Positions 5,224 to 62,336 of a DNA stretch of 64,000 bases are shown piece after piece. Origin of the DNA: Anastrepha obliqua. Its lineage: Eukaryota > Arthropoda > Insecta > Diptera > Tephritidae. A model generated the notes under the pieces. It saw only the letters and a program-made list of their open reading frames with translations. It ran no database searches and was not told the origin of the DNA. The first letter of the stretch is position 1, and every line of letters starts with the position of its first letter. The stretch covers positions 22,258,044-22,322,043 of the forward strand of contig NC_072897.1 in the NCBI RefSeq assembly GCF_027943255.1, read 5' to 3'. A program made the translations under genes and the position numbers.

Positions 5224-6330
5224 TTATTCTAAAGCCTTCTGATACACAAAATTTTTGGTTTTATTTTCATGCGGTGTATAAATATAAAGTAACGATGGTT
5301 TCCCTACTCGAGAACATCCTACATACAGTTGCCCATGTCCAAGGCATGGATAAGATAGATCAATTCCACATAATTGAAGTGTTTGACCTTGAGACTTATT
5401 GATTGTAATAGCAAAAGCAAGGCGAATGGGAAATTGAAGTCGCTTAAAATCAAAAGGCAAATCTGTTGAAATTATTGGAATGCGCGGAATCAAAACATCT
5501 TTACCATTAAATTTGCCTTTCAAAATTGTTGCTTCAATTACATTGTTCATTGTCCGTTTCACTGCTAATCATATCCCATTGCATAGTTTCGGCTGATTGA
5601 TATTTCGCAACATAATGATCACTGCGCCGACTTTCAATTGCAAACGATGTGGTGGCAAGCCAGGCAAATTAAGTGACTTCAAAAATTCAATTGGATAATT
5701 CACTACATCGTCGGGATTAGTGATTGAATCAATTGATTTATAGGTGACAACTTCACCTGGAATTTGAGTCAAAATACTGGCATTGATTTCATTGACATCG
5801 ACATTTTTGGCAGCTAATATACATAGCTCTCTCGCTTAGCCAATCTTGATTTCGATACTTTTGTGCAGTATTTGTACCACCAAATATGTTTGTGTTATTT
5901 CGAAAATCTTTCAGTGTTCTATTTAAGGCTTCCAGTGATTTTTTGTGAGCCATCGTACATACATCCCATACAATAATTTTACATGTTTGTAAAACCTTTC
6001 CCATTCCAGAATTTTTAGAAATGTTGCAAGTTGGTTCTTCATTTACTTGCATATTTAATGGTAACTTTAATGCAGAATGTACAGTGCGACCGCCGTCCAA
6101 TAAAGTTGCCGCTATTCCAGATGATGCCAAAGCCAATGCAATATTATTCTGTGATCGAATGGTGGCCAAGTCCCACCTGGTGCATCTAAGAAGAATATTC
6201 CTCCTATTTCATTTGCAACATTGTCTATAATTGTGTCGTATACCTGCCTTTGTTCTGTGTTTAATTTTAGTAAGTTTGTTGTTACAAATGTGTTCAGATC
6301 ATTTCGATTATATTCTTTTTCACGTCATAA
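5224..6330 (-). pseudogene. Helitron PIF1-like helicase domain, fragmented
   Basis: Three frames on the minus strand carry successive helicase pieces. About 6170-6330 holds LNTEQRQVYDTIIDN and GGIFFLDAPGGT, the start of Walker A. 5789-6169 holds a segment with IVWDVCTMAHKKSLEAL (Walker B region). 5224-5772 holds the C-terminal motifs (PGEVVTYKSID, LCNG, FAITINKSQGQTL, QLYVGCSRVGKPS). The Gly-Lys-Thr of Walker A is deleted with a frameshift, the Walker B 'DE' reads DV, and roughly 100 residues are missing before YRNQDWLSERA. The helicase cannot work. Confidence 0.85.
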
Positions 6331-8505
6331 TTCTGCATTGTATGCATCATGCATCGGACGATTTGGTGCGATCATACCTAACTCACTCAGAGTTTTATTT
6401 GCAATCATCAGGCAAAAGTCTTCGATTTTAATTAATGCCTCATTATATAATTCATCTGTATAATTCAAATTTGGATTTGCAGTAATGCGACGTACTTGAT
6501 GTAGGATATCTTCTGTCATGTATTCTTGGTAAGTACTCCACAATTCTTTTGGCTTTGCTGGGAAACATGTAGCAATAATGATGGCAAATAGTGTTCTTAT
6601 TTGGTGTGGAGAACTTGTTGCACATGCATCCATAAGAGTTGCATCCCACTGATTATCATTTTCAAGCAAATTCAATTCTTTGCATGCTTGCTGATAAGTA
6701 CAACAAAGATGACCATTAACTCGTTTCAAACTTCCGAGTGATCTTGGGCCGGGAATATCAACTAAGAGTAAACGTAAATAGAAACATTCCACTTTACTTG
6801 GATGCACAGTGTAAAGTCGTCCGATTGCATCACCCAAATGAACACTTGGATATCCATCTACAGGTATTCCTCGTTGCCTTCGTACCCAGGACCTTGATGA
6901 TGCATTCCAAGTATAATATTTAGGAACATTTGAATAAAGCAATGTTCTTGCAAATGAATCTGTTTCACATAAGCTGAAAAATGCAGTTAGTGTTGTTGCT
7001 GGTGGTCGTTCGGCCATTTGTTGAGCAGTATTTTCAGTGAAATAAACACTTTGTTCATTTTCTAAATGGTCTGACAAATGAATAACAGCTGGATGGCGAT
7101 CATGAATCGGAAATGATAATATTCTCCAAACTGCTTCGTTGCTACTAATGTATCTTCCCATTTGGTAATTAGTAATTTCATCATTTCGATTTACAACTCT
7201 AAATACTGGCATGTTAATTCCTTTATTGATATATTTGCAAATGTATTTGATGGATTTTACGGAGTTACAATATTCAACATTTATATGTGCGTCAAATGTT
7301 TTCGATAATAATTTGGAATACGGAACTATCCAACGATTATCGATCTCTACATCTCGATTATTTATTTTCACAGTGACTGTTTTTCCATTATTTTCTGGTG
7401 ATCTTCTACGGTACAATGGATATCCATCATTTCCAGTCATTGTTTCAGCAATTAATTGCCTTGGGTAGTTTTTTGAACATTTACCATCAGCCATACATGG
7501 AGAATTTTGATTTAACGTACCACATGGTCCATTAATCATGTTTTTGGTTACAGTAGTATGTAATTCTGGATCTTCCTTTATATCTGGAATTTCAGCACAC
7601 AACCAAATCAAAATATGCGCATTAGGCAAGCCTCTTTTTTTCCATTCCACAGAATACATGAAACATTGTACATCTCCGTAAACTTTATGTTTTACAATGA
7701 AATCCATTAGAGACTGTAGCTTTCGTCTAAACACTCTTGCAGTAATGTCATGCCTATCAGTAGTTGATTGCCCAGTATAAAAATGATTCTTAATATCATC
7801 CCATTTCGGATTGCATGTGAAAGTTATGAATAAGTCGGGTCGACCATAATTTCTGACATAACACATTGCATCTTGGGCGTATTCATGCATATGCCTTGGA
7901 CTGCCTGTATACGATGAAGGTAATATTACCATTTGACCAATGTTATTAACGTTGGTATCGTTGTTAATTGCATCTCGTAAATGTATGTATTCGTCACAGC
8001 GTAATTTTCTTTGGTTGAATCTAATGTAATTCAATCGTTCTGTTTCTATTTTCGCATACATGTCAACAATATACTGATGAAATAATTTACGACATTTTAA
8101 AATGTGATTCTCTTGATTTTCTCTTATCATGATTCTGTATGCATAATAATTCATTGCGCTTACAGTTTTATTTGTTTCTTGACCATTTGCTGGATTCATT
8201 TGTTTTATATCAATCGAATAACCATCTTCACCACAACAGAACATAAGAGGATATTGTAACGCATCATATTTTCGATGCGTTTCATTAACACGTTGCAGTG
8301 TATGATTTCTTCTTTGCAAAACAATATCTCTTGGTTGAAATTCATCTCCAGATATAACAATTGCAACCTCGTTGCTTGAAGTTGGTTGATTGTATCTTCC
8401 ACGATGTTCGCCGGCAGGCGTTTTATTTGCATCAATTTTAATTTTATGATTATCAGATGACAATCTTTCGATTGTTGTTTTAAAACTTTACACCAAAACA
8501 TTGTG
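6325..8505 (-). pseudogene. Helitron Rep (HUH endonuclease) and Helitron-like N domain
   Basis: A 712-codon open frame (ending at 6325) includes the Helitron-like N-terminal region (YDALQYPLMFCCGEDGYS, MNYYAYRIMIRENQENHIL) and the Rep core (CYVRNYGRPDLFITFTCNPK, then LPNAHILIWL, then YICKYINKGI). Rep nicks and rejoins DNA during rolling-circle transposition. Its HUH motif normally reads HAH-type here, but this copy has Asn for the first His (PNAHI). Copy 2 has PHAHI. The frame is cut at its 5' side by the hAT-like insertion at 8506. Long and open, yet probably inactive. Confidence 0.9.
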
Positions 8506-9514: not shown

Positions 9515-9945
9515 TTTTTTTTTTTTTTTTTTTTTTGGAGGTGGCAAAAAGCATTGAAAGCCGAAAAGTGTGAGACTTGTCTTTCGACTCACCCACTAAA
9601 AACCCCACCCCAGCTCCGTTTCCCTCCCGCGGGACGACCGTTAGGTAATACTTCACGGGAGGGGGACCGGCCTATTGCCTCTTCATGAAAATCTGCGCTG
9701 GTGTTCAGCACATCGCAGTTTGGTATTTACTTATCGTTAAGTATTAATCCTGGGAGGGGAGCGGCCTATTGCCTCTACTTGAAAATCTGCGCTGCTGTTC
9801 AGCGTGACGCAATTTGGTGATTCCTAATACCGTTAAGTATTTCTAGGTACTACTTCACGGGAGGGGGTGTGGCCTATTGCCTCTACGTAACAATCTGCGC
9901 TGTTGTTCATTGCGACGCAGCTTGGTAATTACTATCCTTGCCATG
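9515..9945 (-). repeat. LINE 3' UTR with three tandem ~105 bp repeats
   Basis: Three units of the pattern CACGGGAGGGG...GGCCTATTGCCTCT...ATCTGCGCTG occur at about 9652-9750, 9751-9845 and 9846-9945, directly after the stop codon region and before the poly(A). Repeated 3' UTR units may take part in RNA recognition by the reverse transcriptase, but that is inference. Confidence 0.7.
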
Positions 9946-11636
9946 TTACTGACAGCGGACCAATGTTCTTCTGAGTCAAGCATGATATCTACTAGGTTGC
10001 TAACCATTATTGGCTTCCCCACCCTATCACTCAATTCTACTCTTTCCAGCTCGAAACGAGGGCAGACAAAGAAAACATGTTCTGCATCTTCAACTAGACT
10101 GTCGCAAAAGGTGCAGTACGGGTCATCTTCGTGCTTAAATCTATGCAGATAAGCCTTAAAGCATCCATGCCCACTAAGTAATTGGGTCAGGTAGAAATCT
10201 ATCTGACCATGCTTTCGATTTATCCATCTTGTGATATTCGGGATCAATCGATATGTCCATCGTCCGTTCATGGAGTTCCTCCATTCCTCCTGCCAAGTAC
10301 GGATGCTTCGCTCCCGATCAGTCCTTCGGTTAGTCAGCTGTGCCGGACCCGCTCGATGTTTTTTTATTTCGGCGAATTCTAGCGCAGTCAGCTTAACTGG
10401 TAGCATACCCGCGAGGACTAATACAGCATCTTCCGATACTGTGCGGAATGCACAGCACACCCTGAGGGCACATAACCGGTATACCGATTTAATGCCTTTC
10501 ATGTATGTGCTGCATTTAGTTGCTTCGACCCAGGCTGGTACTGCATATAGCAAGATAGATGATACCACACTGCTAAGCAACTTCCTAGAAGCCTGCCTAG
10601 GTCCTCTCGTATTCATCATAATACGTGTCAATGCGGTTACAGCTTTCGCTGCTTTATCGCTGGCGTATGTTAGGTGCTGTTTAAAGCTCAACCTGTGGTC
10701 AATCATTACCCCAAGGTATTTGATGTACAACTTAGACTCTAGAGCGTGGTCACCTACTCTGAGATTTGCCGTTTCGACTATTTTCCTGCTACTGATGAGA
10801 ACTGCCTCTGTTTTATGGTTTGCAAGGCTTAAACCACTATTGCGCAGCCAATCTTTTGTGATTTCGATCGCTTGGTTGCAAATCGCTTCGGCCTGGTTTA
10901 GGAATTTAGCAACGACTACGATTGCAATGTCATCAGCAAACCCTATGATTTGGGATCCTGGAGGTAGTTGGAGACGCAAAACTCCATCGTACATTATATT
11001 CCAGAGGAGTGGGCCCAACACTGACCCCTGTGGTACTCCTCCGGTTACTCTGCACCTTTTCATTCCTTCGTCGGTTTTGTATTGCAGCACTCTGTTAGTG
11101 AAGTAGCTTGCGACAATTTTCCGAATGTAGGCTGGGACTCGGAAATTCTCCAGCGCATTTAGGATTTTGCCCCAGTTTGCTGTATTAAATGCATTTTTTA
11201 CATCTAACGTTGTGACTAGGCAATACTCTTTATCTCCGTAGAGCCAGCGAGAACCTTCAATCGCTTTGTGAGCAATGCGCTTAATCGCTATAACAGCATC
11301 TGTGGTAGAGCGTGTTTTACGGAAGCCATATTGGTGCGGCGATAACCCTCCGGCACTATCGATGGAAGATTCCAGGCGATTTACAATTAGCCTCTCTAAT
11401 ATTTTCCCTGCCGTGTCCAGTAAGCATAGTGGGCGGTAGCCTGAGGGATCTTCCGCCTAGACCCTTTTGGTATTAGCACTAGCTTTTGCAGTTTCCACTC
11501 TTTCGGGAATGTGCATTCTTCTAGGCAGGAGTTGTAAACATCCACAAAGATTTCTGAATGCTTTTGGATTGCCAACTTAAGAGCTTCATTCGGGATTGCA
11601 TCGGGCCCGGGTGCCTTATTGCCTTTGATCTGTTTA
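9855..11636 (-). pseudogene. R1-type reverse transcriptase and C-terminal domain
   Basis: On the minus strand the protein begins KQIKGNKAPGPDAIPNEALK. It continues through the fingers/palm (LSPHQYGFRKTRSTTDA, TLDVKNAFNTANW, GGVPQGSVLGPLLWN) to the catalytic GFADDIAIVV, then the thumb and a C-terminal cysteine/histidine knuckle (CTFCDSL...HVFFVC), ending RPHPLP at 9855. A one-base frameshift near 11449 changes the frame (KGSRRK, then out of frame). Endonuclease and ORF1 are missing through 5' truncation. The large plus-strand frame opposite (10231-11106) is a shadow. R1/LOA-group placement is from overall similarity. Confidence 0.85.
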
Positions 11637-13567: not shown

Positions 13568-14955
13568 CTACGAAATGGGCTGAGGTAAAGGTCGTATTCA
13601 TTCCAAAGGTAGGGAAAAAACCCGAACAATTCTAAGTCATACAGACCGATTAGCCTTAGCTCATTTTTCCTAAAAACAATGGAAAAAATATTGGATCAGC
13701 ACATACGGGAGAATAACTTGGTTAATTTCCCACTGCACCAACTTCAATTTGCCTACCAACAAGGTAAATCTACTGAGACTGCAATACACAGTCTGGTAAC
13801 CATTATTGAAAAAGCTATTGAGCCAAAACAAATCGCACTTTGCGCTTTTATTGACATAACAGGAGCTTTCGATAATACGTCCTATGAGGCAATCAGCAAT
13901 GCCCTATCTCAAAAGGACGTACCTAAACCCATCAGACGATGGATTATATCGATGCTGAGATCCAGAACGATCAGTACAGAATTAGGAGGAAGAATAAAGT
14001 CTATCAAGGCCACAAGAGGTTGCCCGCAAGGGGGAGTACTCTCTCCTCTTCTGTGGACACTAGTAATAGATGAACTTCTCCACAAACTGAACAACCTAGG
14101 ATTCCACACCCAGGGCTATGCTGATGACCTGGGCTGGCATGAAGAGACCATCTCTAACCGCATGCAACAAGCCCTCAACATAATAAACAAATGGTGCACT
14201 GACAAAGGGCTCTCTATCAACCCATCTAAAACTGCGCTAGTGCCGTTCACCAGGAAAAGGAATATCAACATCAAATGTCCTGTCCTGAATGAATCGACTC
14301 TACAACTCTCCACAGAGGCGAACTACCTTGGTATCAACCTTGACAAAGCGCTTACCTGGAACTCGCATCTTGAGAAAGTTACTGTAAAAGCCACAAGGGC
14401 ATTCTATGCCTGCACAAGGCTTTTTGGTAAAACATGGGGGCTCAGCCCCAGAATGACCTACTGGACATTCACTACAGTTGTTAAGCCTATAGTCACTTAT
14501 GCTTCCATAGCATGGTGGCCCAAAGTTAAGCAACGAAAGGCGGCAAGCGATCTTAACAAAGTGTACCGCCTCATCTGCATCGGTATAACAGGAGCAATGA
14601 AAACATGCCCAACTGACGCTTTGGGCGTGCTCCTAGGTATACCACCGCTTCCCATCTTAATTGAAAAAGAAGCAAGACTGAGTGCCTTAAGACTAAAAGG
14701 CAACGCCGATCTTAAAAGTGGAGATATGAGAGGGCATCTAAAGATCTTAGAAGACTTTCGACACACTCCTATACTACACAGGGTGGATACAATATCTCCC
14801 AAACCCATTCTCTACAGAAACTTCCGATTTATTATTAATGAACGAACAACTTGGAGAACTAATTCTATCAATTTCAAGCCTGGATCTCAATTATGGTTCA
14901 CTGATGGGTCCAAGCTGGAAGATGGTAGAGCAGGGGCAGGAATCAATGGGCCTAA
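13568..14955 (+). pseudogene. LINE ORF2: reverse transcriptase and start of RNase H
   Basis: Starts inside the reverse transcriptase (VKVVFIPKVGKK), with a frameshift near 13630. From 13679 it is open as MEKILDQHIREN, with QLQFAYQQGKSTETAI, ATRGCPQGGVLSPLLW and the catalytic GYADD. The RNase H domain begins with LWFTDGSKLEDGRAGAG and is then cut by the LTR insertion. The continuation is at 19091-19848. The 430-codon open stretch and few defects suggest a fairly recent copy. Confidence 0.88.
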
Positions 14956-15648
14956 TGTAATGTACAAGTAATGTAGTGTACTTATAATGATAGTATCAGA
15001 GATCGTCATGTAAATGAGCGAAACAGGATCATCGAAATAAAAGAATTACTAATTCACGGAAGAGCTTTAGGGCAAACCTGCCGACTAAAGGTTCCTTTAA
15101 AAATAAAAGAAGATTTTTAGAGTTAGGGCAAACGACTGCCTTCCAACTATTAGGAGTGAGCTGTGTGAGCTGCTAGAGCTGACTGAGCTGACTTCTGATA
15201 GAATGGCTTTATTTTTATACTTTCTTTTTGCCTTGTCATCAATATACATAATTACAATCAAACATTTGTTGCGAGTAACAAATCAATAACAAAGTTGTAA
15301 ACACTTAAAAATACTATACAAATAAAATTCTGCTTAGGTTGACTTAAATTTTATTCGGGGTTAGCTTACTTCACAGTGAGTTATGGCTTTGCTTTGGAGT
15401 GGGGTATCGTGTGACAAAAGTGCATTTGGTGTGTGCCATGTGTTTACTTATGTTTCGGGTTTCAAAGAAAAGGGCAAAGAGTTTATGTTATTGAAATTGA
15501 AAAAGAATTATGTTATTAAAGTGGAGTAAATTGAAATGAAAGAATTATGTCATTAAAATTGAAAGTAGAGTGAATTGAAGTTGTTTACTTATATTAATTT
15601 GAGTTGGAGTATTAGGAATATTTGGAAGTGAAGTGGAGGTACTCTACA
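14956..15648 (-). repeat. 3' LTR of the FABP-carrying retrotransposon
   Basis: 693 bp, direct repeat of 18403-19090. On the minus strand a short purine stretch (ATAGGGG) immediately precedes it and may be the remains of the polypurine tract. Confidence 0.92.
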
Positions 15649-15826
15649 CCCCTATGGTTAAGATTGAAAATTACTGTGCTAAGAAATTTGTTTAAATTTT
15701 GCAAGTACAGTGGTTTTCAATAAAAATAATTTTATGACTTTAAAAGTTTCTTAGTATATCTAAATCTATTTTTAATTCTATGTTTTATAGTACATTTTTC
15801 TTAAATTTATTTAATATGATAATATT

Positions 15827-17422
15827 TTAGGTGATTTTGTATTTCTTAAGGGTACTATTATGATATTCCTTAAGCTTATTGTTAATTTGTAATACAGAAT
15901 TGACTCCTTTACGCTCTACTATGAGATAAGGGCCATGATATGGACTTTGCTGTTTTCTTCTAGTTTCTAGTTTTACAAATACCCAGTCACCTACTTTTAG
16001 TTCTGATGTGTTACTGTTCTTGTCATATAGTTCTTTTCTCTTTTGTTTTGTTAGTTTTATCAGTTCTTGTGCTCTAAGAAGTGACTCTTTTAGTCTAAAT
16101 TTCATCTCATTTGCGTAATTGTTTAAGTTATATACTGGTTGATTGTCCTCGATTATGTCAGTTGGTAAGCGTGGAAGTTTTCCGTATATTAACTCGTATG
16201 GTGTAAATTCCGTCTCTATGTTTGGCGTGGTATTAAAAGCGAATGCAAAATAAGGTAACCACTGGTCCCATTCGTGATTTTCTATGAAGTGTAACAGAAA
16301 TTCATTTAGGACTCTGTGACTCCTTTCAACTGTTATTGTCTGATGGTGATAGGGTGCTGAAAAGGTCTGCTTTATATTTAGTATTTCGCAAATATTTTTC
16401 ATTAATTCATTTGCAAACTCTGTACCTCGATCAGATTTTAATGTTTTAAAAAGTCCGTATTTTAGTATTACCTGTTCTACTAGTATCTTTGCGATAGAAA
16501 TTGCTTCTTTAGTTTTCATTGGGAATAAGATTACGTATTTTGTCAGTTCGCATTGTACCGTTAAAATATATCGGAAACCATTTGATATAATCAATGGTCC
16601 TACTGTATCTATGCTTAAATTTTCAAAGCTTGTACTAGGTGTGTCCGTTATTGTCATTTTTTCTTTTATGTACTTTGTCTGTTTGTTTCGAGTACATTCT
16701 TTACAACTGTTTATATATCGTTTTATCATTTTTCTCATGTTCTTCCATATGTATTTTTGCTTTAATTTTAAGATAGTTTTTCTTATACCCAGATGTCCTC
16801 CTAGTGCTGAATTGTGATACTCAAAGATTTTTTTTTTTTTTATTTCTTCGTCATTAATTTGTTTTGGGGCTTTATATAAAATTATTCTTAGGGGTCTTAA
16901 TTTTTGTTCTATTTTTTCACTTTGTAACTTGTTGAATGCATTCTTAAAATCTTCAATATTCATTTCTTTTAATAAATTATCTTTTGCTAGCGCTAGCTTT
17001 TCTATATTTCTTTTAGTCGCTATTGATGATAGTTTCGCCATGATTGAAACGTATTTCAGAGGCTCCTCACTATATCGGACTATAATATCCCCTTTTTTAT
17101 TTATCTGTATTTCGAATCCTTTCATTTTTTCTTCGTATACGAATTTTAATCTTTTTATATTTCTTATATCAGCTATGGACGTACATTCCCAAATGTGAAG
17201 TTGGCCTGACTTCGAATGAGAGTTGTAGTTCTCCTTGTCTACCCTGGTTTTTTTTTTGGCAGACATTCCCCTTGTTATTACAAATATTTTATTATTGTCA
17301 TCACAATTCGTTGGTATCATTTTTTTTAGTATGTCTGAGTCTATCTTTATTCGTGATAATGCATCGGCGTTTGTGTTCATTTTGCCTTGCTTGTAGACTA
17401 TATCGAAATCATAGTCTGACAA
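15827..17422 (-). CDS. Gypsy-type integrase with RNase H tail (partial pol)
   Basis: 531 codons, uninterrupted. Residues 1-25 are the end of the pol RNase H region (SDYDFDIVYKQGK then NADALSRI). The HHCC zinc-binding module is H203, H210, C240, C243. The catalytic triad is D272 (SIDTVGP), D331 (SDRGTEF) and E366 (VERSHR). The second spacing is 34 residues by hand count, one less than the canonical 35: QTNGQVE-type sequence reads QTITVE here. The C-terminal part has the SH3-like region of gypsy integrases (VGDWVFVK, GPYLIVERKG). Integrase inserts the cDNA into the host genome. The ATG used is internal to pol, so no protein may start here. Confidence 0.88.
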   Translation of the reverse strand: MSDYDFDIVYKQGKMNTNADALSRIKIDSDILKKMIPTNCDDNNKIFVITRGMSAKKKTRVDKENYNSHSKSGQLHIWECTSIADIRNIKRLKFVYEEKMKGFEIQINKKGDIIVRYSEEPLKYVSIMAKLSSIATKRNIEKLALAKDNLLKEMNIEDFKNAFNKLQSEKIEQKLRPLRIILYKAPKQINDEEIKKKKIFEYHNSALGGHLGIRKTILKLKQKYIWKNMRKMIKRYINSCKECTRNKQTKYIKEKMTITDTPSTSFENLSIDTVGPLIISNGFRYILTVQCELTKYVILFPMKTKEAISIAKILVEQVILKYGLFKTLKSDRGTEFANELMKNICEILNIKQTFSAPYHHQTITVERSHRVLNEFLLHFIENHEWDQWLPYFAFAFNTTPNIETEFTPYELIYGKLPRLPTDIIEDNQPVYNLNNYANEMKFRLKESLLRAQELIKLTKQKRKELYDKNSNTSELKVGDWVFVKLETRRKQQSPYHGPYLIVERKGVNSVLQINNKLKEYHNSTLKKYKIT

Positions 17423-17994
17423 ATCAAGTCTAATCCTAATCTAAGTCTAATCTACACTTTTTTTTATTTTCATTAAGGTGCACGAATATTCAATTTTATG
17501 TTTATTTAACTGAATGCAAAAAGTCACATTTGTTCTTATGCCGGTTTTGTGCTTAAATATTTGTCAATGATAAAAATTGTAAATTCAATGTTAATATATT
17601 TAAATGCATTAGCGAAAAATCTCTATTCAACAATATTTATCATAGCATGTGTGAACAATTTGATGCGCGTCGTTATTAATATTGAGAATTATTTCACTTT
17701 AATTAGCAGCCTAATCACATAAAAATAGTTAATTGTTACCTAATAACGACTTCATACTTTTAATTACATTATTTTATGCATTAATCAGCAAATAATCAGT
17801 CATAAACAAAATTGGGATATTCACAATCCAAAATATATATATATGTATATGTAGTTATATAAAGTACAATGTATGCTGTATGATAGTTAGTTTTTCAATC
17901 ATTAGTTTATTGCAAGAAGTGGCATTTTTTATTTTAAATTACTTTAGCTTTTTGTTACTGTTGTTTTGAACTTCGCATGTAGCGCACTGCGCAT
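17423..17994 (-). other. Probable 3' UTR and poly(A) remnant of the captured FABP mRNA
   Basis: After the FABP stop the minus strand is A/T-rich non-coding sequence. It contains AATAAA at 17501-17506 and, about 35-40 bases further, an A8 run (17458-17465) that abuts a short TCTAATC-type filler and then pol. This is the order expected for an mRNA 3' end joined to the retrotransposon. Confidence 0.6.
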
Positions 17995-18347
17995 TTATAC
18001 AGCCTTGTAGACTCTGACGGACTTCACGTCGTTGAGGGTGAGAGTAGTCACTAGCTCGGAGTTAGTGAATTCACGAATAATGGTCGATGGTTTGTCACCC
18101 TTCTGTTCTTGCACCAATTTGTTGCCATCCAGAGTGAAGACGCTCTTCACTTTGCGACCATCAAGTGTCTCTTCATCGAATTCCTCTCCCAGCTTGAAGT
18201 TGACCGTAGTTATCTTAAAGGTTGAGGCAGTGGTGAAAGAGTAATTATCACCATCCTTCTTCAGTTCAACTCCTTCAATTCCTTCATGTATTCGTCGAAG
18301 TTTTCACTCTTTTCTAATTTGTATTTCTTTCCTTCCCAGACAGCCAT
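17995..18347 (-). pseudogene. Captured fatty-acid-binding protein (FABP/iLBP) copy inside an LTR element
   Basis: The minus strand starts MAVWEGKKYKLEKSENFDEY. After a frame-shifting deletion it continues VELKKDGDNYSFTTASTFK, FKLGEEFDEETLDGRKVKSV, TLDGNKLVQEQKGD and TLTLNDVKSVRVYKAV with a stop at 17995-17997. This is the beta-barrel of an intracellular lipid-binding protein. The C-terminal R-x-Y that contacts the fatty-acid carboxylate is present. Roughly 17 residues of the helical lid are missing, with a frame change near 18272. No introns are present. Base composition is richer in G+C than the pol frame beside it. As it stands it cannot make a whole FABP. Confidence 0.9.
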
Positions 18348-18402
18348 TTTTACTAATGATTTATTTTTAGGATCGTCCGCAGGATCGTCCGCAGGATCGC
18401 CA
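18348..18402 (-). other. Putative primer binding site and leader with 12 bp repeats
   Basis: Directly inside the 5' LTR the minus strand reads TGGCGATCCTGCGG, a TGG-initial primer-binding-site position. It is followed by about 2.5 copies of a GGATCCTGCGGAC-like 12-mer and a short A/T leader before the FABP start codon. The tRNA used is not identified. Confidence 0.5.
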
Positions 18403-19090
18403 TGTAATGTACAAGTAATGTAGTGTACTTATAATGATAGTATCAGAGATCGTCATGTAAATGAGCGAAACAGGATCATCGAAATAAAAGAATTACTAAT
18501 TCACGGAAGAGCTTTAGGGCAAACCTGCCGACTAAAGGTTCCTTTAAAAATAAAAGAAGATTTTTAGAGTTAGGGCAAACGACTGCCTTCCAACTATTAG
18601 GAGTGAGCTGTGTGAGCTGCTAGAGCTGACTGAGCTGACTTCTGATAGAATGGCTTTATTTTTATACTTTCTTTTTGCCTTGTCATCAATATACATAATT
18701 ACAATCAAACATTTGTTGCGAGTAACAAATCAATAACAAAGTTGTAAACACTTAAAAATACTATACAAATAAAATTCTGCTTAGGTTGACTTAAATTTTA
18801 TTCGGGGTTAGCTTACTTCACAGTGAGTTATGGCTTTGCTTTGGAGTGGGGTATCGTGTGACAAAAGTGCATTTGGTGTGTGCCATGTGTTTACTTATGT
18901 TTCGGGTTTCAAAGAAAAGGGCAAAGAGTTTATGTTATTGAAATTGAAAAAGAATTATGTTATTAAAGTGGAGTAAATTGAAATGAAAGAATTATGTCAT
19001 TAAAATTGAAAGTAGAGTGAATTGAAGTGGTTTACTTAATTTGAGTTGGAGTATTAGGAATATTTGGAAGTGAAGTGGAGGTACTCTACA
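18403..19090 (-). repeat. 5' LTR of the FABP-carrying retrotransposon
   Basis: 688 bp, nearly identical to 14956-15648. The main difference is a 5 bp deletion near 19035. Confidence 0.92.
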
Positions 19091-19848
19091 CTAAATTTAA
19101 AAAATCGATTCCGATGGGACTCTACCCAACAATATTCCAGGCAGAAATACATGCCATTGAAATATGTGTGAGAGAATGCCTTCGCAGGAAAATGAGAGGT
19201 ACTCACATCTACATACTCTCAGATAGTCAAGCGGCTCTAAAAGCCCTTCTATCAACAACTATCACCTCTAAATTGGTAAATGATTGCCTAAACCTTCTCA
19301 ACATGTTAGGAAACCTCAGCACAGTAACTCTAGTCTGGATTCCGGGACATGAAGGGCATGAGGGGAATGAAATGGCTGATGACCTCGCAAAACAAGGAGC
19401 AAATATGCAACTTACTGGTCCTGAGCCTTTCTGTGGACTCACGAAAAGCCACATTAATGAATTCCTCAGGAAATGGGAAGAAAGGAAATTTGCTGCACAC
19501 TGGCTAAATTGTGCCGGTCAGCGTCAAGCCAAACAATTTCTTAGTCCCAACAAAGGAATATCAGACAAGCTACTCTCACTAAACAGAGTAGATCTGCGTC
19601 TTTTAACAGGATACCTCACAGGTCACTGCAGCCTGAGGTATCATTTAAATAACATTGGTCTATCAGAGACCAATGTCTGCCGCTTTTGCGAAATGGATAT
19701 AGAAAGCTCAGAACATGTGCTCTGTGAATGTCCTGCGCTGGGCAGACAAAGACTTCACCACCTTGGTGGTATCGTAGTATCTCCATGTAATCTTTGGAAC
19801 AACAAACCCACAATAGTGCTAAAATTTATAAAAAGCCTTAAACTCTAG
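19091..19848 (+). pseudogene. LINE ORF2: remainder of RNase H and C-terminus
   Basis: Continues the frame of 13679-14955 as KFKKSIPMGLYPTIFQAEIHAI. RNase H acidic residues are visible: QAEIHAIE, YILSDSQAALKAL, and WIPGHEGHEGNEMADDLAKQ. A C-terminal knuckle follows (CRFCEMD...HVLCECPAL). RNase H removes RNA from the cDNA hybrid and is typical of I/R1/LOA-type LINEs. The first few codons of the longest local frame belong to the LTR and are not part of the LINE. Confidence 0.88.
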
Positions 19849-23915: not shown

Positions 23916-23925
23916 GGAGTGAATT

Positions 23926-25210
23926 TTGATCGAGTGTTATAACAAGGTGTGCCCGGAACGCAGGAGAAGAGAGGGTAAGACAGTCCCTTCGTGGAACGCC
24001 GAACTCTCGAAACTCCGGAAAACTTCCAGGAAACTTCTTAACAGATCTCTTAAAACTCAGTTGGAAGAAGATTGGACTGTCTACCGAAAGCTGAGGAAGG
24101 AATATAAAAAGAAAATTAGATCATCTAAATTGGACTCTTACAGAACCTTCTGCAGTGAACTGGCGGGACGGAAGAGTTCAGCGAGGTTATGCAAAGCCCT
24201 CCAAAGAGACCGGACATGTAGGCTAGACTCACTGCCCAAATCAGATGGTACTTATACATACTCAAAATTAGAAGTGTACGATGTTCTCTTTTCAACACAT
24301 TTACCTGGCTCCAGGAATGTTGTTGGTCAAAGCTCTATCGATCAATCTGATCATGTCAATATAATTACCAGCAGACGTGATTGGTTTATTGCATCCAGGA
24401 TAGTTAACAAGGAAACGATAAGGTTCGCCTTCTCGTCATTCGAAAACTTTAAGTCCCCAGGACCCAATGGCATTTACCCAATCATGCTCAAGCGAGGCGG
24501 AGAACAACTAATAAAGGCTTTGAAAAAAATCTTTACGGCATGTCTTGCGCACGCTTATGTTCCACAACTGTGGCGTTTGGTGAAAGTTGTATTTGTCCCA
24601 AAGCCAGGCAAGGACAGCTACGCTTTACCAAAAAGTTTCAAACCTATAAGCCTGACATCGTTTATGCTTAACGGTCTGGAACGTATGGTGGAGAAGCACA
24701 TTAGGACGAGGGTTCTAAGTCGAAACCCTCTCAACGTCAGACAACATGCTTATCAAAGTAGGAAATCTTGCGAATCGGCTCTGTACAAGTGCGTTAGCAT
24801 AATCGAAAAAGGGCTGGAAACAAAAGAGTACACTCTTGGCGTGTTTGTGGACCTTGCTCTTCTATCAGAAGTCATGGACTAGAAGAAATCATTGTCTGAT
24901 GGATCCACTCTATGCTATCCAAAATGCTGCTTACCATGGATAGAGAAAGCGATGAAGGAGTTGAGGTTAAGAAGGATTGCCTACAATGTGATGTACTCTC
25001 TTCCCTACTTTGGTGCTTCGTGATGGACTCCCTTCTTAATGATCTGCAGGAAATTGGACACATCCAAGCCTTCGCAGACGATGTGTGCGAACTAATCTCA
25101 GGACGATCACTTGAAGTTATATGCAATAAAATGCAGGTAGCTCTAAATAAGATTGAGTATTGGTGCGAATTGCATGGTCTTTCGGTGAATCCTACAAAAA
25201 GTTTGGTGCA
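23926..25210 (+). pseudogene. LINE reverse transcriptase, broken
   Basis: The frame at 23926-24882 carries the pre-RT helical region and FENFKSPGPNGIYPIMLKRG, VKVVFVPKPGKDSY, FKPISLTSFMLNGLERMVE and RQHAYQSRKSCESAL. It is then disrupted at about 24860. 24912-25210 carries the region around the active site, written AFADDVCELISG, and WCELHGLSVNPTKS. Homology ends there. Confidence 0.8.
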
Positions 25211-26524: not shown

Positions 26525-27455
26525 CAAGGTTTGATTGAAAAGTAATGAGCCTTCCCACGCGGAGCGTCTGCCAAGCGATCAACCGAATCCGCTGGTGGGG
26601 GAAAATGACCGTTGGACCTTCCCCTTCTACTAGAAACCGGTTCCAGTTCACTGGCAACAGCGGTGCAGTCAACATCGGTCCGCGAGTGAAAGCTGTTTTA
26701 AAGTTTTTGCAATGGCCAAAATGCAGCGATCGTTGGAGCAATGTTACTCGATCAATTGCGTAAAGCTAAACAAAACGAGTACCGAAACCATTGGGCTACT
26801 CAAGGAGGCTTACGGGGACCAATCTCAGTCCAATGCCCATGTAAAACGGTGGCACAAGTCGTTCAAGGAAGGCCACGACCCAAGAAGGCGCGCATGTCGA
26901 AATCCAAGGTCAAAACCATGCTGATCATCTTTTTCGACTCTCGAGGCATCGTCCACAAGGAGTTTGTAACTCCAGGAAGCACTGTAAACGCGGCATTTTA
27001 CAAAGAAGTGCTCGTCCGGCTGAAAAACCGGGTCGCCCGGGTTCGGACCGACCTCGTCAACAATTGGACTCTTCATCACGACAATGCGCCGGAGCACACC
27101 GCTTTCCTCTGCACCTCGGCATTGGCCAAGATGGGGGTTCCGGTGCTTCTGCACCCTCCCTACAGCCCAGACCTGCCCCTCCGGACTTCTTTTTGTTCCC
27201 GCGCCTGAAAAGAAAGCTGAAGGGGAGGCGTTTCGACTCCATCGAGGCGATCCAAAAAACTGTGACAGCCGAATTGAACGCGATTCCGGCGGATGAGTCT
27301 AAAAAATGTTTCCTGCAGTGGAAGAACCGCTACCAGCGGTGTATTGACGCTCAAGAGGCCTATTTTGAAGAATATTAGTGGTATAAGCCAAAAGGTTTAA
27401 TAAAACTGCTCAAAAAAAAAAAAACTTAGGCTCATTACTTTTCAATCCAACCCTG
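26525..27455 (+). mobile_element. Mariner element, internally deleted, inside env
   Basis: Inverted ends carry TTGATTGAAAAGTAATGAGC at the left and its inverse at the right, with TA at both flanks (26523-26524 and 27456-27457). The surrounding env sequence is contiguous when it is removed. At 931 bp it is shorter than the usual ~1.3 kb. Confidence 0.88.
26712..27378 (+). pseudogene. Mariner transposase, internally deleted and frameshifted
   Basis: Begins MAKMQRSLEQCYSINCVKLN with the helix-turn-helix region (TETIGLLKEAYGDQSQSNAH, VKRWHKSFKEG). A deletion near 26885 removes the rest of the DNA-binding region and the first catalytic Asp. It resumes with IIFFDSRGIVHKEFVTPGST, WTLHHDNAPEHTAFL (second catalytic Asp) and PPYSPDLP. 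A frameshift near 27170 leads to PPDFFLFPRLKRKLKGRRFD and ends EAYFEEY. Unusually G+C-rich beside its host, which points to a later arrival. Confidence 0.85.
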
Positions 27456-36721: not shown

Positions 36722-38010
36722 CAGGGTTGGCCATATTAAACTGACCCATTGAGTAACCCTATAACTTTTTATTGTAATTTCAGATCAGCTAATGACATAC
36801 CGCGTTGGAAGCGTCAGTCGAAGGATATTTATACCATGAGCTGTACATCAGCTGTACATTCAAAATTCCTTCTCGATTGTAAAAACGCAACGTGCGTGGA
36901 GAAAAAAAAATAAAGTGAAAAGTGCGCCGTCAAAGAACGCAATCAAGCAAATGCACAAAAGATTTTTGTCTTCCGGCACTGTGGCTAATACCCGACGTCC
37001 AAATAAAAAGCGGCCAAGACGATCTAACGAAAATATCGCGGCCGTACGAGCCAGTATCGAGTCATCGCCGCGAAAGTCAGGTAATCGTCGTTCTGCTCAG
37101 TTGGACATCCCTCGGACCACTCTACGACGTATCATTCGTTTGGATTTGGGGATATTCCCGTACAAAATACAACTAAATCAACAACTGTTGCCGGCCGATA
37201 AGCCTCGTCGCTTGGAATATGCCAATTTTGTCGTCCGAATGGCCCAAACTAATGAGGATTTTTGGCATCAAATCATTATGAGTGTTGAGGCCCATTTCTC
37301 CTTGAACGGAACCGTAAATAAGCAAAATTGCCGTTTCTACGCCACTGAAAACCCTCAAATTATTGAAGAGGTACCTCTCCATGACCAAAAAGTTACAGTC
37401 TGGTGTGGCATTTGCGCTGATATGGTCATTGGGCCGTTCTTCTTTGAAAATGGTCAACACCAACCATTGACCGTCAATCAAGAGCGTTATCGGGCCATGA
37501 TAACCGATTTTGTGATGCCGATTGTTCGTGAAAATGGTATGGAGCACTTCTGGTTTCAGCAAGATGGCGCACCACCACACACGGCACGAGCCACCGTCAA
37601 CTTATTGAAGACTTTGTTCCCTGGCCGTTTGATATCAAAAAGCGGCGATTTTGACTGGCCGCCACGATCACCGGATTTGACGCCACCGGACTTTTTTCTT
37701 TGGGGCTATTTGAAATCTAAGGTTTACGTCAACAAGCCAAAGACACTAGGCGCACTTAAGGCCAATATCCGACGGGAAATAGCCGCCATATCGGCCGAGA
37801 CGCTGGCCAAAACTATGGAAAACGCCGAAAAACGGGCACATTACGCTATACGAGCTAAGGGCGACCACTTGCGCGATATCATATTCAAAAAGTGATGTAA
37901 ACGAATCTCCTTGAACTAAATTAAATGTTTTTCACAATGAAACACAAAAAAATGTTTTTTTTTCCATATTTTTTTAATAATCACATGGGTCAGTTTAATA
38001 TGGCCAACCC
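36722..38010 (+). mobile_element. Mariner-type element (DD41D spacing) inside B1
   Basis: Inverted ends CAGGGTTGGCCATATTAAAC and the inverse at about 37987-38010. B2 lacks the element at the corresponding place (near 49845), which gives the empty site. Confidence 0.85.
36915..37895 (+). pseudogene. Tc1/mariner transposase with 326-codon open frame but altered active site
   Basis: The frame has a helix-turn-helix part (PSKNAIKQMHKRFLSSGTV, DIPRTTLRRIIRLDL). Around residue 121 the first catalytic motif is normally DEAHF and here reads VEAHF. The second is FQQDGAPPHTA. The third region is SPDLTPPDFFLWGYL. By hand count there are 41 residues between the second Asp and the Asp of PPDFF, the spacing reported for the DD41D group. 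About 40-50 N-terminal residues appear to be missing. It should be catalytically dead despite being open. Confidence 0.85.
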
Positions 38011-43605: not shown

Positions 43606-43655
43606 TTTGAAACAGCCTGTCCAATTCAAACTATCCCTAACCGGACTCCCGTTTC

Positions 43656-45113
43656 TTGATTGAATCTCTGAGTGACACGGCCAAATTGGTTAGGGTTCTG
43701 AAAAGGGACCCAACTGCAAAGCTGGGGTCACTTAGGAAATCTGACGGTTCCTTCACGGAGCGGCAAAGTGAGACACTCAGCTTGCTGATAGAATCTCACT
43801 TTCCTGGTAATCAGATAAGCGTCATCCGGCAACAGCCCTTATTGATAGAGGCGGTTGTCAGAGCTGCTACACCTTCTCGGCATTACTGGTACGTTGCCAG
43901 ATCTGTGGTGAATGAGGCCGCCATTCGATTTGCCATCAAATCTTTTGGCGGCTACAAGTCGCCCGGACCAGATGGCATATATCCTGCCATGCTGAAGGAA
44001 GGCGCAGAGTCCGTGACAGCAGCCCTGAAGAAAATCTTCTTTGCATGCCTGTCAAGGGCCTACATACCACGCTCTTGGAGGATGGTGAGGGTCGCCTTTA
44101 TCCCAAAGGTTGGAAGAGACGACTACACCAGCCCCAAAGGCTTAAGATCCATCAGCATGACTTCTTTTATGCTGAAAAGTCTCAAACGACTGGTAGAATT
44201 GCGCATACGTCAGAAGTCGCTGAAGGCTCACCCTCTGTCTCCGTTTCAGCATGCCTATCAAAGTGGAAAATCCTGCGAGTCGGCACTGCAAAACCTTGTT
44301 GCCAGGGTAGAGCTGGCCATCGACAGGAGGGACTACGCAATGGGCATCTTTTTAGACATAGAAGGGTCGTTTGCTAGTAGGCACGGCATAGACTGGGTGC
44401 TAGTGAATTGGATTCGTTCGTTGCTGGCCCAAAGAATCGTTTCGGTACAAGCAGAGGAAGATCTGCTGGTGTCATCCGGGGTTAATAGTAGTTGCCCCCA
44501 AGGCGGTGTGATGTCTCCATTGCTCTGGTGCATGGTAATCGATCCTCTACTCACCATTATAAACGATTCAGGAGTATACGCACAAGGATATGCGGACGAT
44601 GTTGCTTGCTTGGTAACAGGCCCTTCGCTTATGAACATCTGCAGGAAAGTGCAGAAAACTCTGGATCGGATTGACACTTGGTGCTGTGCGAATGGGCTAT
44701 CGGCAAATCCCGCCATGACTGGTATTGTCCTCTTCACCAGAAGAAGGAAGCTTGATGAACTCGTTCTGCCCAAGCTAAAAGACGTCACAATCCCGCTATC
44801 CAAGGAAATTAAATATCTTGGAGTAATCCTCGATAGTAAGCTCCTATGGAAATCACACGTTGAAACAAAGACATCCAAAGCACTGACAGCTTATCACCTA
44901 TGCATCAGTGGTCTGGATGAGAGGACTCTCTGTAGTGGGAGTCAGGAGGACCTTATCGAGACTACAACGCACTGTGCCATATGTTGCACCGGAGCTTTTC
45001 CGACTATTTCAGGCCCGGCATTAGATGCTCTGACTGGTTTACCACCTTTTGATTGTTTCATCCAAGGAGAGGCCTTAAAGGCCCCCTGCAGGCTGAAACA
45101 CAATGGGAACTGA
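43656..45113 (+). pseudogene. LINE reverse transcriptase, long open frame
   Basis: 485 codons open: RVLKRDPTAKLGSLRKSDGS, YKSPGPDGIYPAMLKEGAES, PKGLRSISMTSFMLKSLKRL, FQHAYQSGKSCESAL, SSCPQGGVMSPLLWCM and the catalytic GYADDVACLV, with ANPAMTGIVLFTRRRK and KYLGVILDSKLLWKSH in the thumb. The palm motif A region reads FLDIEGSF, so the first catalytic Asp is present. A stop ends it before RNase H. Confidence 0.85.
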
Positions 45114-46733: not shown

Positions 46734-47225
46734 GAATAGGACCAAGTGTGGCAGCTTTTCAAGCGATTTGACGACGAAGCAACATGTTTGAAATGCAATA
46801 AAATCATTAAATGCAAGTCATCGTCAACATCTGGACTTCACCGTCACATGGAGAGGATACACAACATGAAGCGAAGGGAACATGAGGCTCCAAAAGAACA
46901 GCCACCAGCCAAGAAGACCCGAACTCTTCACAACTTTTTCAATACTTCTTCCTCGCCTGAATCGCTTGAACAAATTGTTGCAAAATTGGCTGCAAAAGAT
47001 GGAATTCCAATAAACGCGATAACAAAAAGTGAGTTCATTCGTAATAGTATCAGCCGCTTAGGATTTCATCTTCCAAAGTGTCACAAAGCTGTTCTGGGTT
47101 TGGTTATGAAGTTCTGCACGAAAATAAAAAGCGATTTGAAGCTCAAAATTGAAAATTTTAAATCTGCACAGCGTAAGTTCAGCTTGAGCATCGACGGACA
47201 AGCGTGCGAAACCGACGTTACATGA
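46734..47225 (+). pseudogene. hAT transposase N-terminus with BED zinc finger
   Basis: VWQLFKRFDDEATCLKCNKI...SGLHRHMERIHN is a BED finger (C-x2-C...H-x4-H). KKTRTLHNFF and KLAAKDGIPINAITKSEFIR follow, then FSLSIDGQACETDVT at the start of the RNase H-like core. A frameshift follows; the strand continues as RYMNIHIYYDDGQSDNLGL and breaks again at an A-run near 47341. A stop lies just upstream (46738), so the annotated start is uncertain. Confidence 0.88.
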
Positions 47226-54317: not shown

Positions 54318-55337
54318 TTATTTATTTCTGCAGAGAAAGTGTTCCATAGTCTCTTTCTCTGTAGGATCCCCCCAGCTTCTGCAAAGGGGGTTGTACGGAA
54401 TTCCAAGCTTCTCCGCGTGAGTGCCGATCACCCAGTGGCCAGTGATCACCGCGATGAGTTTGGAAATTGAATGGCGGGGGGTTCCTATCACCTTAAGCGT
54501 TCTGTTTATATCGTATTGAGGCCATAGTGCTTTTGAAATGGCACACGATGAGACGGACCTCCGTCTGTCTTGCGCTTTTCTTAGAAAGAAGTTGTGTAGT
54601 TTCCCTTTAACGATGGCCAAGGGGATACCAAGGGGTTCTGCCGCTTCCTTCCTGGCAAGCTCATCGGCAATTTCATTTCCCTCTATAATCCTGTGCCCAG
54701 GAACCCAGATGAGGGAGATGTTTCCTGCCCGTTCGAGGCGTTTAAGTTCCTCCTTACAGGAGTTCACGAGAAGAGAGCTGCAATGCGGCGACGACAGTGC
54801 CTTGATTGCAGCTTGGCTATCGGAAAAAATATTTATGTCTCCCTCCCAACAGCGATCCCGAAGCATTTTGCATGCCTGCAGGATCGCGAAGACCTCTGCT
54901 TGAAAGACGCTGCTTGTCTCCGGCTGTTTATAGGAGACCGAAATGTTGGCTGATTTGGAGTAGACCCCCGCTCCCACTCCAGACTCCATTTTGGATCCGT
55001 CAGTGAAAGCAGAGGCCTCTATATCCGCAACAACTCTCCCCTCTTTCCAATCTTGCCTGCTCGGAAAGATAGCCCTAGCACAGCCCTCAAAGTACAGTTC
55101 GCGGATGGAGAGGTCGGTGCGAATATCAGAGAAGGAAGGGGAGATCTGCTTTAAGATGCTGCTATGCCCAACAGGGAGTTGTCTCCAAAGGCCAAACTCC
55201 TTCAGTTTGATAGCACTCTGAGCAGCAATGGATTTAACCTGCAGATCCACAGGAATTAAGTGGAGTATAACGTTGAGCGCAGCGGTGGGACATGTTCTGC
55301 AGGCACCAGTGATGCCCACACATGCAGTTCTCTGCAC
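54318..55337 (-). pseudogene. LINE ORF2: connection and RNase H domains
   Basis: Contains GITGACRTCPTAALNV, then RNase H residues at SAFTDGSKMESGVGAG, QAEVFAILQACKML, NIFSDSQAAIKALS and WVPGHRIIEGNEIADELARK. The knuckle begins CRSWGDPTEKETMEHFLC, with W in place of the second Cys, and is cut off by the 3' truncation. Confidence 0.85.
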
Positions 55338-55382
55338 TCTCTCTAATTTAGTGAGGTTGTAGCCCTTCTGAAGAGCTAACCA

Positions 55383-61223: not shown

Positions 61224-61224
61224 A

Positions 61225-62336
61225 TTCTAGGGCAAGCATATCATTTAATAGGTTCATTACTACCACTACCCGATCAAGAGTCAAAATTTTTGCAAATTTA
61301 TTTCATTAATGAGAACGATGATGAACTTGAAGCACGGTGTGCATTTTCCAGAAATATAAACAGAGTCATTCTGAGAGAGTTACAAGATTTATTACACACA
61401 CACAATGTTTTAGTGCAAAGTTTTAGAACAACAACAATCGAAAGATTGTCATCTGATAATCATAAAATTAAAATTGATGCAAATAAAACGCCTGCCGGCG
61501 AACATCGTGGAAGATACAATCAACCAACTTCAAGCAACGAGGTTGCAATTGTTATATCTGGAGATGAATTTCAACCAAGAGATATTGTTTTGCAAAGAAG
61601 AAATCATACACTGCAACGTGTTAATGAAACGCATCGAAAATATGATGCATTACAATATCCTCTTATGTTCTGTTGTGGTGAAGATGGTTATTCGATTGAT
61701 ATAAAACAAATAAAACCAGCAAATGGTCAAGAAACAAATAAAACTGTAAGCGCAAAGAATTATTATGCATACAGAATCATGATAAGAGAAAATCAAGAGA
61801 ATCACATTTTAAAATGTGAAAATAGAAACAGAACGATTGAATTACATTAGATTCAACCAAATAAAATTACGCTGTGACGAATACATACATTTACGAGATG
61901 CAATTAACACCGATACCAACGTTAATAACATTGGTCAAATGGTAATATTACCTTCATCGTATACAGGCAGTCCAAGGCATATGCATGAATACGCCCAAGA
62001 TGCAATGTGTTATGTCAGAAATTATGGTCGACCCGACTTATTCATAACTTTCACATGCAATCCGAAATGGGATGATATTAAGAATCATTTATATACTGGG
62101 CAATCAACTACTGATAGGCATGACATTACTGCAAGAGTGTTTAGACGAAAGCTACAGTCTCTAATGGATTTCAATGTAAAACATAAAGTTTACGGAGATG
62201 TACAATGTCAAAAAAGAGGCTTGCCTCATGCGCATATTTTTATTTGGTTAAAACAAAAACTAACCACAGATAAAATTGATCATATTATATGTGCTGAAAT
62301 TCCAGATATAAAGGAAGATCCAGAATTACATACTTC
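61225..62336 (+). pseudogene. Helitron copy 2, N domain and Rep core
   Basis: Reads GQAYHLIGSLLPLPDQES, FINENDDELEARCAF, then the N domain. A deletion of about 14 codons after NHILKC shifts the frame near 61820. The Rep core follows (YVRNYGRPDLFITFTCNPKW) with the intact-looking KRGLPHAHIFIWL. The stretch before it (FMYSVEWK in copy 1) is deleted. It ends at DPELHT, where the LINE begins. Confidence 0.88.

What the first reader, a model, noticed from the sequence alone, without database searches (positions are those of the whole stretch)
14956..19090. LTR retrotransposon that has transduced a host fatty-acid-binding-protein mRNA
Seen: between two nearly identical LTRs with a CTAA duplication, on the same strand as pol, lies an intron-less FABP sequence (17995-18347). 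It is followed by an A/T-rich 3' UTR with AATAAA and an A8 run (17458-17465) joined to the tail of pol RNase H. Gag, protease and reverse transcriptase are gone. Known: retroviruses can capture cellular mRNAs through template switching; this is rarely documented for insect gypsy elements. Inferred: the FABP mRNA was co-packaged and recombined into the element at both ends, and the chimera then moved in trans. Near-identical LTRs mean it jumped recently.
Basis: partly seen in the sequence, partly recalled or inferred. Interest (0 to 1): 0.88.

Follow-up and report, generated by a model that had tools for sequence, protein, structure and literature searches.

The report
Host FABP mRNA copied into retrotransposon
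A retrovirus-like jumping element in what looks like a fly genome has had its middle replaced by a copy of a host fatty-acid-binding-protein messenger RNA; this is a clean and well-preserved example of a gene-copying accident already known from flies.

Summary
A 4,135-bp LTR element (14956-19090, minus strand) has LTRs of 693 and 688 bp that differ by one base and a 5-bp indel. CTAA flanks it, and removing it restores a 698-codon non-LTR-retrotransposon frame. Between the primer-binding region and a pol remnant (presumed RNase H tail plus integrase) lies a same-strand FABP copy (18347-17995) with a short 5' leader, 529 bp of AT-rich 3' sequence, AATAAA and an A8 run. No separate target duplication was found round the FABP part. 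The FABP frame is broken by a net 43-nt loss; integrase is one residue short before its catalytic Glu. Short tandem repeats sit at the three internal joints.

Best reading: an FABP mRNA was packaged with element RNA and reverse transcriptase switched templates. This is LTR-mediated retroposition (Tan et al. [quoted passage not shown] So "rarely documented" is wrong, and a later jump in trans is not needed. Parental gene, intact element and copy number could not be examined: the genome search did not complete. Verdict: real, good anatomy, known kind.

The parts
13613..14955 (+). 5' part of the non-LTR retrotransposon frame (RT) that was the target
   Evidence: Pfam RVT_1 1.1e-35; joins in frame with 19095 onward when the insert is removed
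14952..14955 (.). target-site duplication CTAA, left copy
14956..15648 (-). 3' LTR of the element (693 bp, TG...CA)
   Evidence: 1 mismatch + 5-bp indel against the other LTR
15649..15653 (-). short purine run AGGGG next to the 3' LTR, weak candidate polypurine tract
   Evidence: sequence; by position only
15827..17440 (-). pol remnant: presumed RNase H tail (recalled motif) and integrase in one open frame of 537 codons; D-x58-D-x34-E
   Evidence: Pfam Integrase_H2C2 6.7e-19, rve 3.3e-9; PFV and Ty3 matches; spacing
17429..17454 (-). short imperfect tandem repeats at the joint between the A-run and pol
17458..17465 (-). A8 run, candidate remnant of the mRNA poly(A) tail
17501..17506 (-). AATAAA, ending 35 nt before the A8 run
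17466..17994 (-). candidate FABP 3' UTR (529 bp, 74% A+T)
   Evidence: by position; not compared with a parental gene
17995..18270 (-). FABP coding part 2 (91 codons and stop)
18265..18286 (-). 9-bp imperfect duplication at the site of the missing FABP codons
18276..18347 (-). FABP coding part 1 (24 codons from ATG)
   Evidence: 5gge_A, E 4.6e-7
18348..18368 (-). 21 bp between the leader repeats and the FABP ATG, candidate 5' UTR
   Evidence: by position
18369..18399 (-). 12-bp unit repeated 2.6 times with 100% matches, at the 5' joint
18391..18402 (-). candidate primer-binding site TGGCGATCCTGC directly after the 5' LTR
   Evidence: sequence; match to the 3' end of tRNA-Arg(ACG) is recalled, not tested
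18403..19090 (-). 5' LTR of the element (688 bp)
19091..19094 (.). target-site duplication CTAA, right copy
19095..19848 (+). 3' part of the target frame (RNase H)
   Evidence: Pfam RNase_H 6.4e-11

Best explanation
It is an LTR-mediated retrocopy: a Ty3/gypsy-type element whose gag, protease and most of pol were replaced, during reverse transcription, by a nearly whole host FABP mRNA. Shown by sequence: one clean insertion (TSD CTAA, open empty site), element ends intact, order LTR - primer-binding region - FABP (short leader, coding part, AT-rich tail, AATAAA, A8) - pol remnant - LTR, all on one strand. Inferred: an FABP mRNA was packaged beside element RNA in a virus-like particle; minus-strand synthesis, going from the 3' end of the element RNA, left it in pol, jumped into the poly(A) tail of the mRNA, copied it to near its 5' end (slipping once inside it and losing about 16 codons), then jumped back to the element leader next to the primer-binding site. 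The product got two LTRs and was integrated by proteins supplied by an intact element. It probably makes no working FABP (broken frame) and cannot move on its own.
For: Single TSD and restored 698-codon frame. Same-strand FABP with ATG and stop. AATAAA ending 35 nt before the A8 run at the 3' joint. Between the sequence before the FABP ATG and the 60 bases after the A-run the longest exact shared word is 5 bases, against a shuffle mean of 6.1 (500 shuffles). Tandem repeats at the three joints among the five arrays that TRF lists in the interior; 0.019% of 200,000 random placements hit all three joints within 10 bases, and 0.44% hit the two joints not defined by their own repeat (the joints were chosen after looking). 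The net loss of 43 nt equals a 52-nt jump at a GTTG microsimilarity plus a 9-nt duplication if the parent encodes 131 residues (arithmetic; parent not seen). The mechanism is described in PMC5408686, PMC9674220 and PMC4997597 (passages).
Against: The parental FABP gene, an intact copy of the element and a transcript were not seen: the genome search did not complete (ten calls). Intron loss is therefore unproven: PMC3796463 (passages) gives 3 exons for D. melanogaster and 2 for mosquitoes, and the codons now missing lie where I recall the first FABP intron to fall. Three other A8+ runs lie in the interior, so the A8 run could be chance. AATAAA also occurs at 17906-17911, 17928-17933 and overlapping the A-run (17463-17468), and ATTAAA at 17698-17703 and 17759-17764, so a polyadenylation signal somewhere is expected in such AT-rich sequence and the outer 3' part need not be FABP UTR. 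With one mismatch allowed, the flanks share 9 bases (shuffle mean 8.3), which is at chance level but not nothing. Microsimilarity at the two fusion points cannot be tested without parents.
Confidence: 0.85

Rival explanations
1. DNA-level capture as proposed for acute retroviruses: an element next to the FABP gene was fused to it by a deletion or by read-through, and the 3' part was gained by a later recombination.
For: The 5' joint lies close to the primer-binding site, and PMC4997597 (passages) describes read-through and non-homologous recombination as the believed route for oncogenes.
Against: The segment begins only 21 bp before the ATG and ends in AATAAA plus A8, as a whole mRNA would. 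No intron-like interruption is seen in the two coding parts.
Confidence: 0.08
2. A processed FABP pseudogene made by a LINE inserted into an LTR element that had already lost, or later lost, gag and most of pol.
For: A-run at the 3' end; several non-LTR retrotransposon frames lie in the window.
Against: No direct repeat found round the FABP part: longest exact shared word 5 bases, shuffle mean 6.1; 9 with one mismatch, shuffle mean 8.3. It needs deletions ending exactly at the insert on both sides.
Confidence: 0.04
3. The chimera is itself an established non-autonomous element with several copies, carrying FABP as cargo through repeated rounds, and this is a later copy.
For: Both LTRs and the primer-binding region are kept, so its RNA could be copied by helper proteins; LTRs near-identical.
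Against: No second copy in the 64-kb window. Internal AATAAA words would tend to end its transcripts early (inference). Copy number in the genome not examined.
Confidence: 0.12
4. Assembly artefact or chimeric contig.
For: None seen.
Against: TSD, empty-site restoration and matching LTRs are hard to get by misassembly.
Confidence: 0.01

Closest known systems
LTR-mediated retrocopies of Drosophila, mosquito, zebrafish and chicken (Tan et al. 2016, Genome Res 26:1663; not held, known here only through PMC5408686, PMC9674220 and PMC8232201, passages)
   Same: mRNA-derived insert inside an LTR retrotransposon, LTRs kept, integration by the element's route
   Different: Here nearly the whole mRNA appears to be taken, with a candidate poly(A) remnant; [quoted passage not shown]
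Pxyfem of Plutella xylostella (PMC9674220, passages)
   Same: template switch between LTR element RNA and a host mRNA; a 15-bp duplication at one joint
   Different: its authors could not identify LTRs; it is multicopy on the W and makes small RNAs; nothing of the kind is known for this copy
Bs1 of maize (PMC13317346, passages)
   Same: LTR element carrying cellular gene pieces
   Different: Bs1 took pieces of three genes, none a full-length ORF; here one gene with UTR-like ends
Acute transforming retroviruses (PMC4997597, passages; general anatomy recalled)
   Same: replacement of viral genes by cellular sequence, needing helper proteins
   Different: no sign that this FABP is expressed, functional or spread

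Membership tests
LTR-mediated retrocopy | host gene sequence between parts of a discontinuous LTR retrotransposon | tested here: met
   FABP between primer-binding region and pol remnant, no room for gag/protease/RT
LTR-mediated retrocopy | one target-site duplication at the LTR ends, none round the retrocopy | tested here: met
   CTAA and restored frame; no flanking repeat above chance inside
LTR-mediated retrocopy | derived from spliced mRNA: introns of the parental gene absent | tested here: inconclusive
   no intron-like interruption in two coding parts, UTR-like ends and A-run, but parental gene not available; 3 exons in D. melanogaster, 2 in mosquitoes (PMC3796463)
LTR-mediated retrocopy | microsimilarity at the fusion points | not testable with these tools
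   needs parental element and gene; the genome search did not complete
Ty3/gypsy LTR retrotransposon | LTRs with TG...CA ends and a 4-bp TSD | tested here: met
Ty3/gypsy LTR retrotransposon | tRNA primer-binding site after the 5' LTR | not tested
   TGGCGATCCTGC is in place; the tRNA match is recalled; no tRNA gene in the window
Ty3/gypsy LTR retrotransposon | pol order RT - RNase H - integrase | tested here: inconclusive
   integrase found, with PFV and Ty3 chains as matches; RNase H tail by recalled motif only; RT gone
Errantivirus | env gene after pol | tested here: not met
   178 bp between integrase frame and 3' LTR; an env lost earlier cannot be excluded
LINE-made processed pseudogene | own target-site duplication round the insert | tested here: not met
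Acute-retrovirus-like transducing element | chimera replicates with a helper and spreads the gene | not testable with these tools
   single copy in the window; genome search did not complete

The most novel reading that the evidence does not exclude
The chimera is a replicating, multi-copy transducing element of the host, or a source of small RNAs against the parental FABP gene as Pxyfem is for PxyMasc, rather than a dead one-off.
Probability: 0.08. Interest if true: 0.7.

Novelty: new member of a known kind. Interest (0 to 1): 0.42.

Why it matters
It shows in one young insertion nearly the whole path of LTR-mediated gene copying: both ends of an apparent mRNA, a probable poly(A) entry point, a slip inside the mRNA and repeats at the joints. 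If the parental gene and element are compared, the order and positions of the template switches can be read directly. It adds an apparently dipteran case, but it does not open a new kind of system.

Tried and rejected
Relatives of the integrase in viral contigs: 2 pattern matches, none confirmed. FABP relatives in genome contigs (162 pattern matches) and viral contigs (25): none confirmed. A 23-base pattern of the element in viral contigs: none. FABP region in phage records: none. Rfam at gathering threshold on 14900-19200: none. tRNA genes in the window: none. A second copy of the element in the window by blastn: only itself and its own LTRs. An alternative splice as cause of the missing FABP codons was considered; the 9-bp duplication there speaks for polymerase slippage, but it cannot be excluded. 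Literature searches: judged from the titles and abstract beginnings listed (6 of 6, 20 of 21, 20 of 24, 20 of 149, 12 of 14, 25 of 68, 12 of 927 and 11 of 11 papers); only joined FABP with LTR-element terms, and none of their 17 listed titles is about an FABP capture. Tan et al. 2016 is not held and was not read. PMC6380325 and PMC8580249 were opened (passages) and gave nothing used here.
Full report
What is there. On the minus strand of 14956-19090 lies an LTR element. Its LTRs are 693 and 688 bp and differ by one base and one 5-bp indel, within about 12 bases of each other. CTAA flanks it, and when 14956-19094 is removed the target, a plus-strand non-LTR retrotransposon frame (RT, RNase H), is open for 698 codons instead of 452. 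So this is one clean integration of the usual LTR kind, and a recent one by LTR identity. No rate was applied to give an age.

The inside. In element direction the 2,754-bp interior reads: TGGCGATCCTGC directly after the 5' LTR (a likely primer-binding site; that it matches a tRNA-Arg 3' end is recalled); a 12-bp unit repeated 2.6 times; 21 bp; an ATG (18347); an FABP coding sequence to 17995; 529 bp of 74% A+T; AATAAA at 17501-17506; A8 at 17458-17465; a short repeat-rich joint; then one open frame of 537 codons with integrase domains. Its first residues look, by recalled motif, like the end of a Ty3/gypsy RNase H, but Pfam and PDB gave nothing there. Integrase matches PFV (E 7.7e-25) and Ty3 (2.6e-21) chains. 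There are 178 bp between the integrase frame and the 3' LTR, too few for env.

The FABP. The second part (91 codons) matches Pfam Lipocalin/FABP (E 6.2e-16) and, best of all PDB chains, an FABP isoform B, 5gge_A, which I recall as the Drosophila protein; 64 of 91 residues are identical. The first 24 codons match the same chain's start. The residues in between (24-39 in that chain) are missing, and the parts are in different frames: the coding length is 353 nt where 131 codons and a stop would give 396. At this place stands AAGGAATTG AAGGAGTTG AACTG. A jump between two GTTG words (52 nt lost) and a 9-nt duplication would give exactly -43 if the parent encodes 131 residues; this is a model, as the parent was not seen.

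Joints. Tandem Repeats Finder gives 13 rows for 14900-19200, five of them in the interior: 18369-18399 (5' joint), 18265-18286 (site of the missing codons), 17429-17454 (pol joint), 17833-17861 (AT run) and 15958-15973. With 200,000 random placements, 0.019% touch all three joints and 0.44% touch the two that are not defined by their own repeat. I chose the joints after looking, so this is a guide and not a test. Repeats at joints are what repeated slipping of reverse transcriptase would leave; PMC9674220 reports a 15-bp duplication at one joint of its own case (passages), and PMC4997597 tells of patch sequences at retroviral non-homologous joints (passages).

Was it an mRNA? For: same strand as the element, UTR-like stretches on both sides, AATAAA ending 35 nt before an A8 run at the change from host-like to pol sequence. 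Against over-reading: A8 or longer occurs 4 times in the interior and 21 times on the minus strand of the window; 3.05% of interior points have one ending within 20 nt upstream; AATAAA occurs four times and ATTAAA twice between the FABP stop and the joint. D. melanogaster FABP has 3 exons and mosquito ones 2 (PMC3796463, passages), so the lack of introns is suggestive but not shown for this species.

Not a separate pseudogene. Between the sequence before the FABP part and that after the A-run the longest exact shared word is 5 bases, below the shuffle mean of 6.1; with one mismatch it is 9, near the shuffle mean of 8.3. A LINE-made insertion would usually show a longer repeat, and would also need two deletions that end exactly at it.

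Mechanism. Minus-strand synthesis runs from the element's 3' end: pol, then a switch into the A tail of a packaged FABP mRNA, along the mRNA with one internal slip, then back to the element leader by the primer-binding site. Proteins came from an intact element; integrase here is one residue short before the catalytic Glu and gag, protease and RT are absent, so this copy cannot be expected to move alone. It need not ever have been transcribed as a chimera: switching and integration can happen in one cycle. These steps are inferred; only the anatomy is shown.

What is known. PMC5408686 (passages) describes this mechanism from Tan et al. [quoted passage not shown] PMC8232201 (passages) and PMC9674220 (passages) also tell of LTR-mediated retroposition in animals. 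In Lepidoptera a survey found non-LTR elements dominant (PMC11675541, passages). Plants have Bs1 and others (PMC13317346, passages). So the kind is known. The present case is unusual, as far as I saw, only in that nearly the whole mRNA with a candidate tail remnant seems to be kept.

Limits. The host genome could not be searched and the protein database was off, so the parental gene, intact element, copy number and species are not established; 'fly' rests on the FABP match and the general look of the window.

Noticed in passing
15827-17440 (minus): Integrase frame is open but reads D-x58-D-x34-E; alignment to PFV integrase shows a one-residue gap just before the catalytic Glu.
   Followed up: partly
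16828-16841 (minus): A14 run inside the integrase frame, coding for a lysine stretch.
   Followed up: no
15582-15593 and 19029-19036: The only two LTR differences (one base, one 5-bp indel) lie within about 12 bases of each other, perhaps one event.
   Followed up: no
5789-8487 (minus) and 61224-62346 (plus): Helitron-type coding regions in opposite orientation; the first was scanned (PIF1, Helitron_like_N), the second looks near-identical by eye and is broken into overlapping frames.
   Followed up: partly
9855-11456, 23923-24882, 43641-45113, 54318-55382, 62363-64000: Non-LTR retrotransposon RT or RNase H frames (23923-24882 only below the Pfam cut-off, 43641-45113 not scanned and named by eye). 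Among the frames scanned, FABP is the only recognised host-type gene.
   Followed up: partly
26702-27208, 36840-37895 and 46740-47225 (plus): Remnants of DNA transposons: Transposase_1 (mariner-type), a DUF4817 helix-turn-helix protein with 351 open codons, and a BED zinc finger frame.
   Followed up: partly
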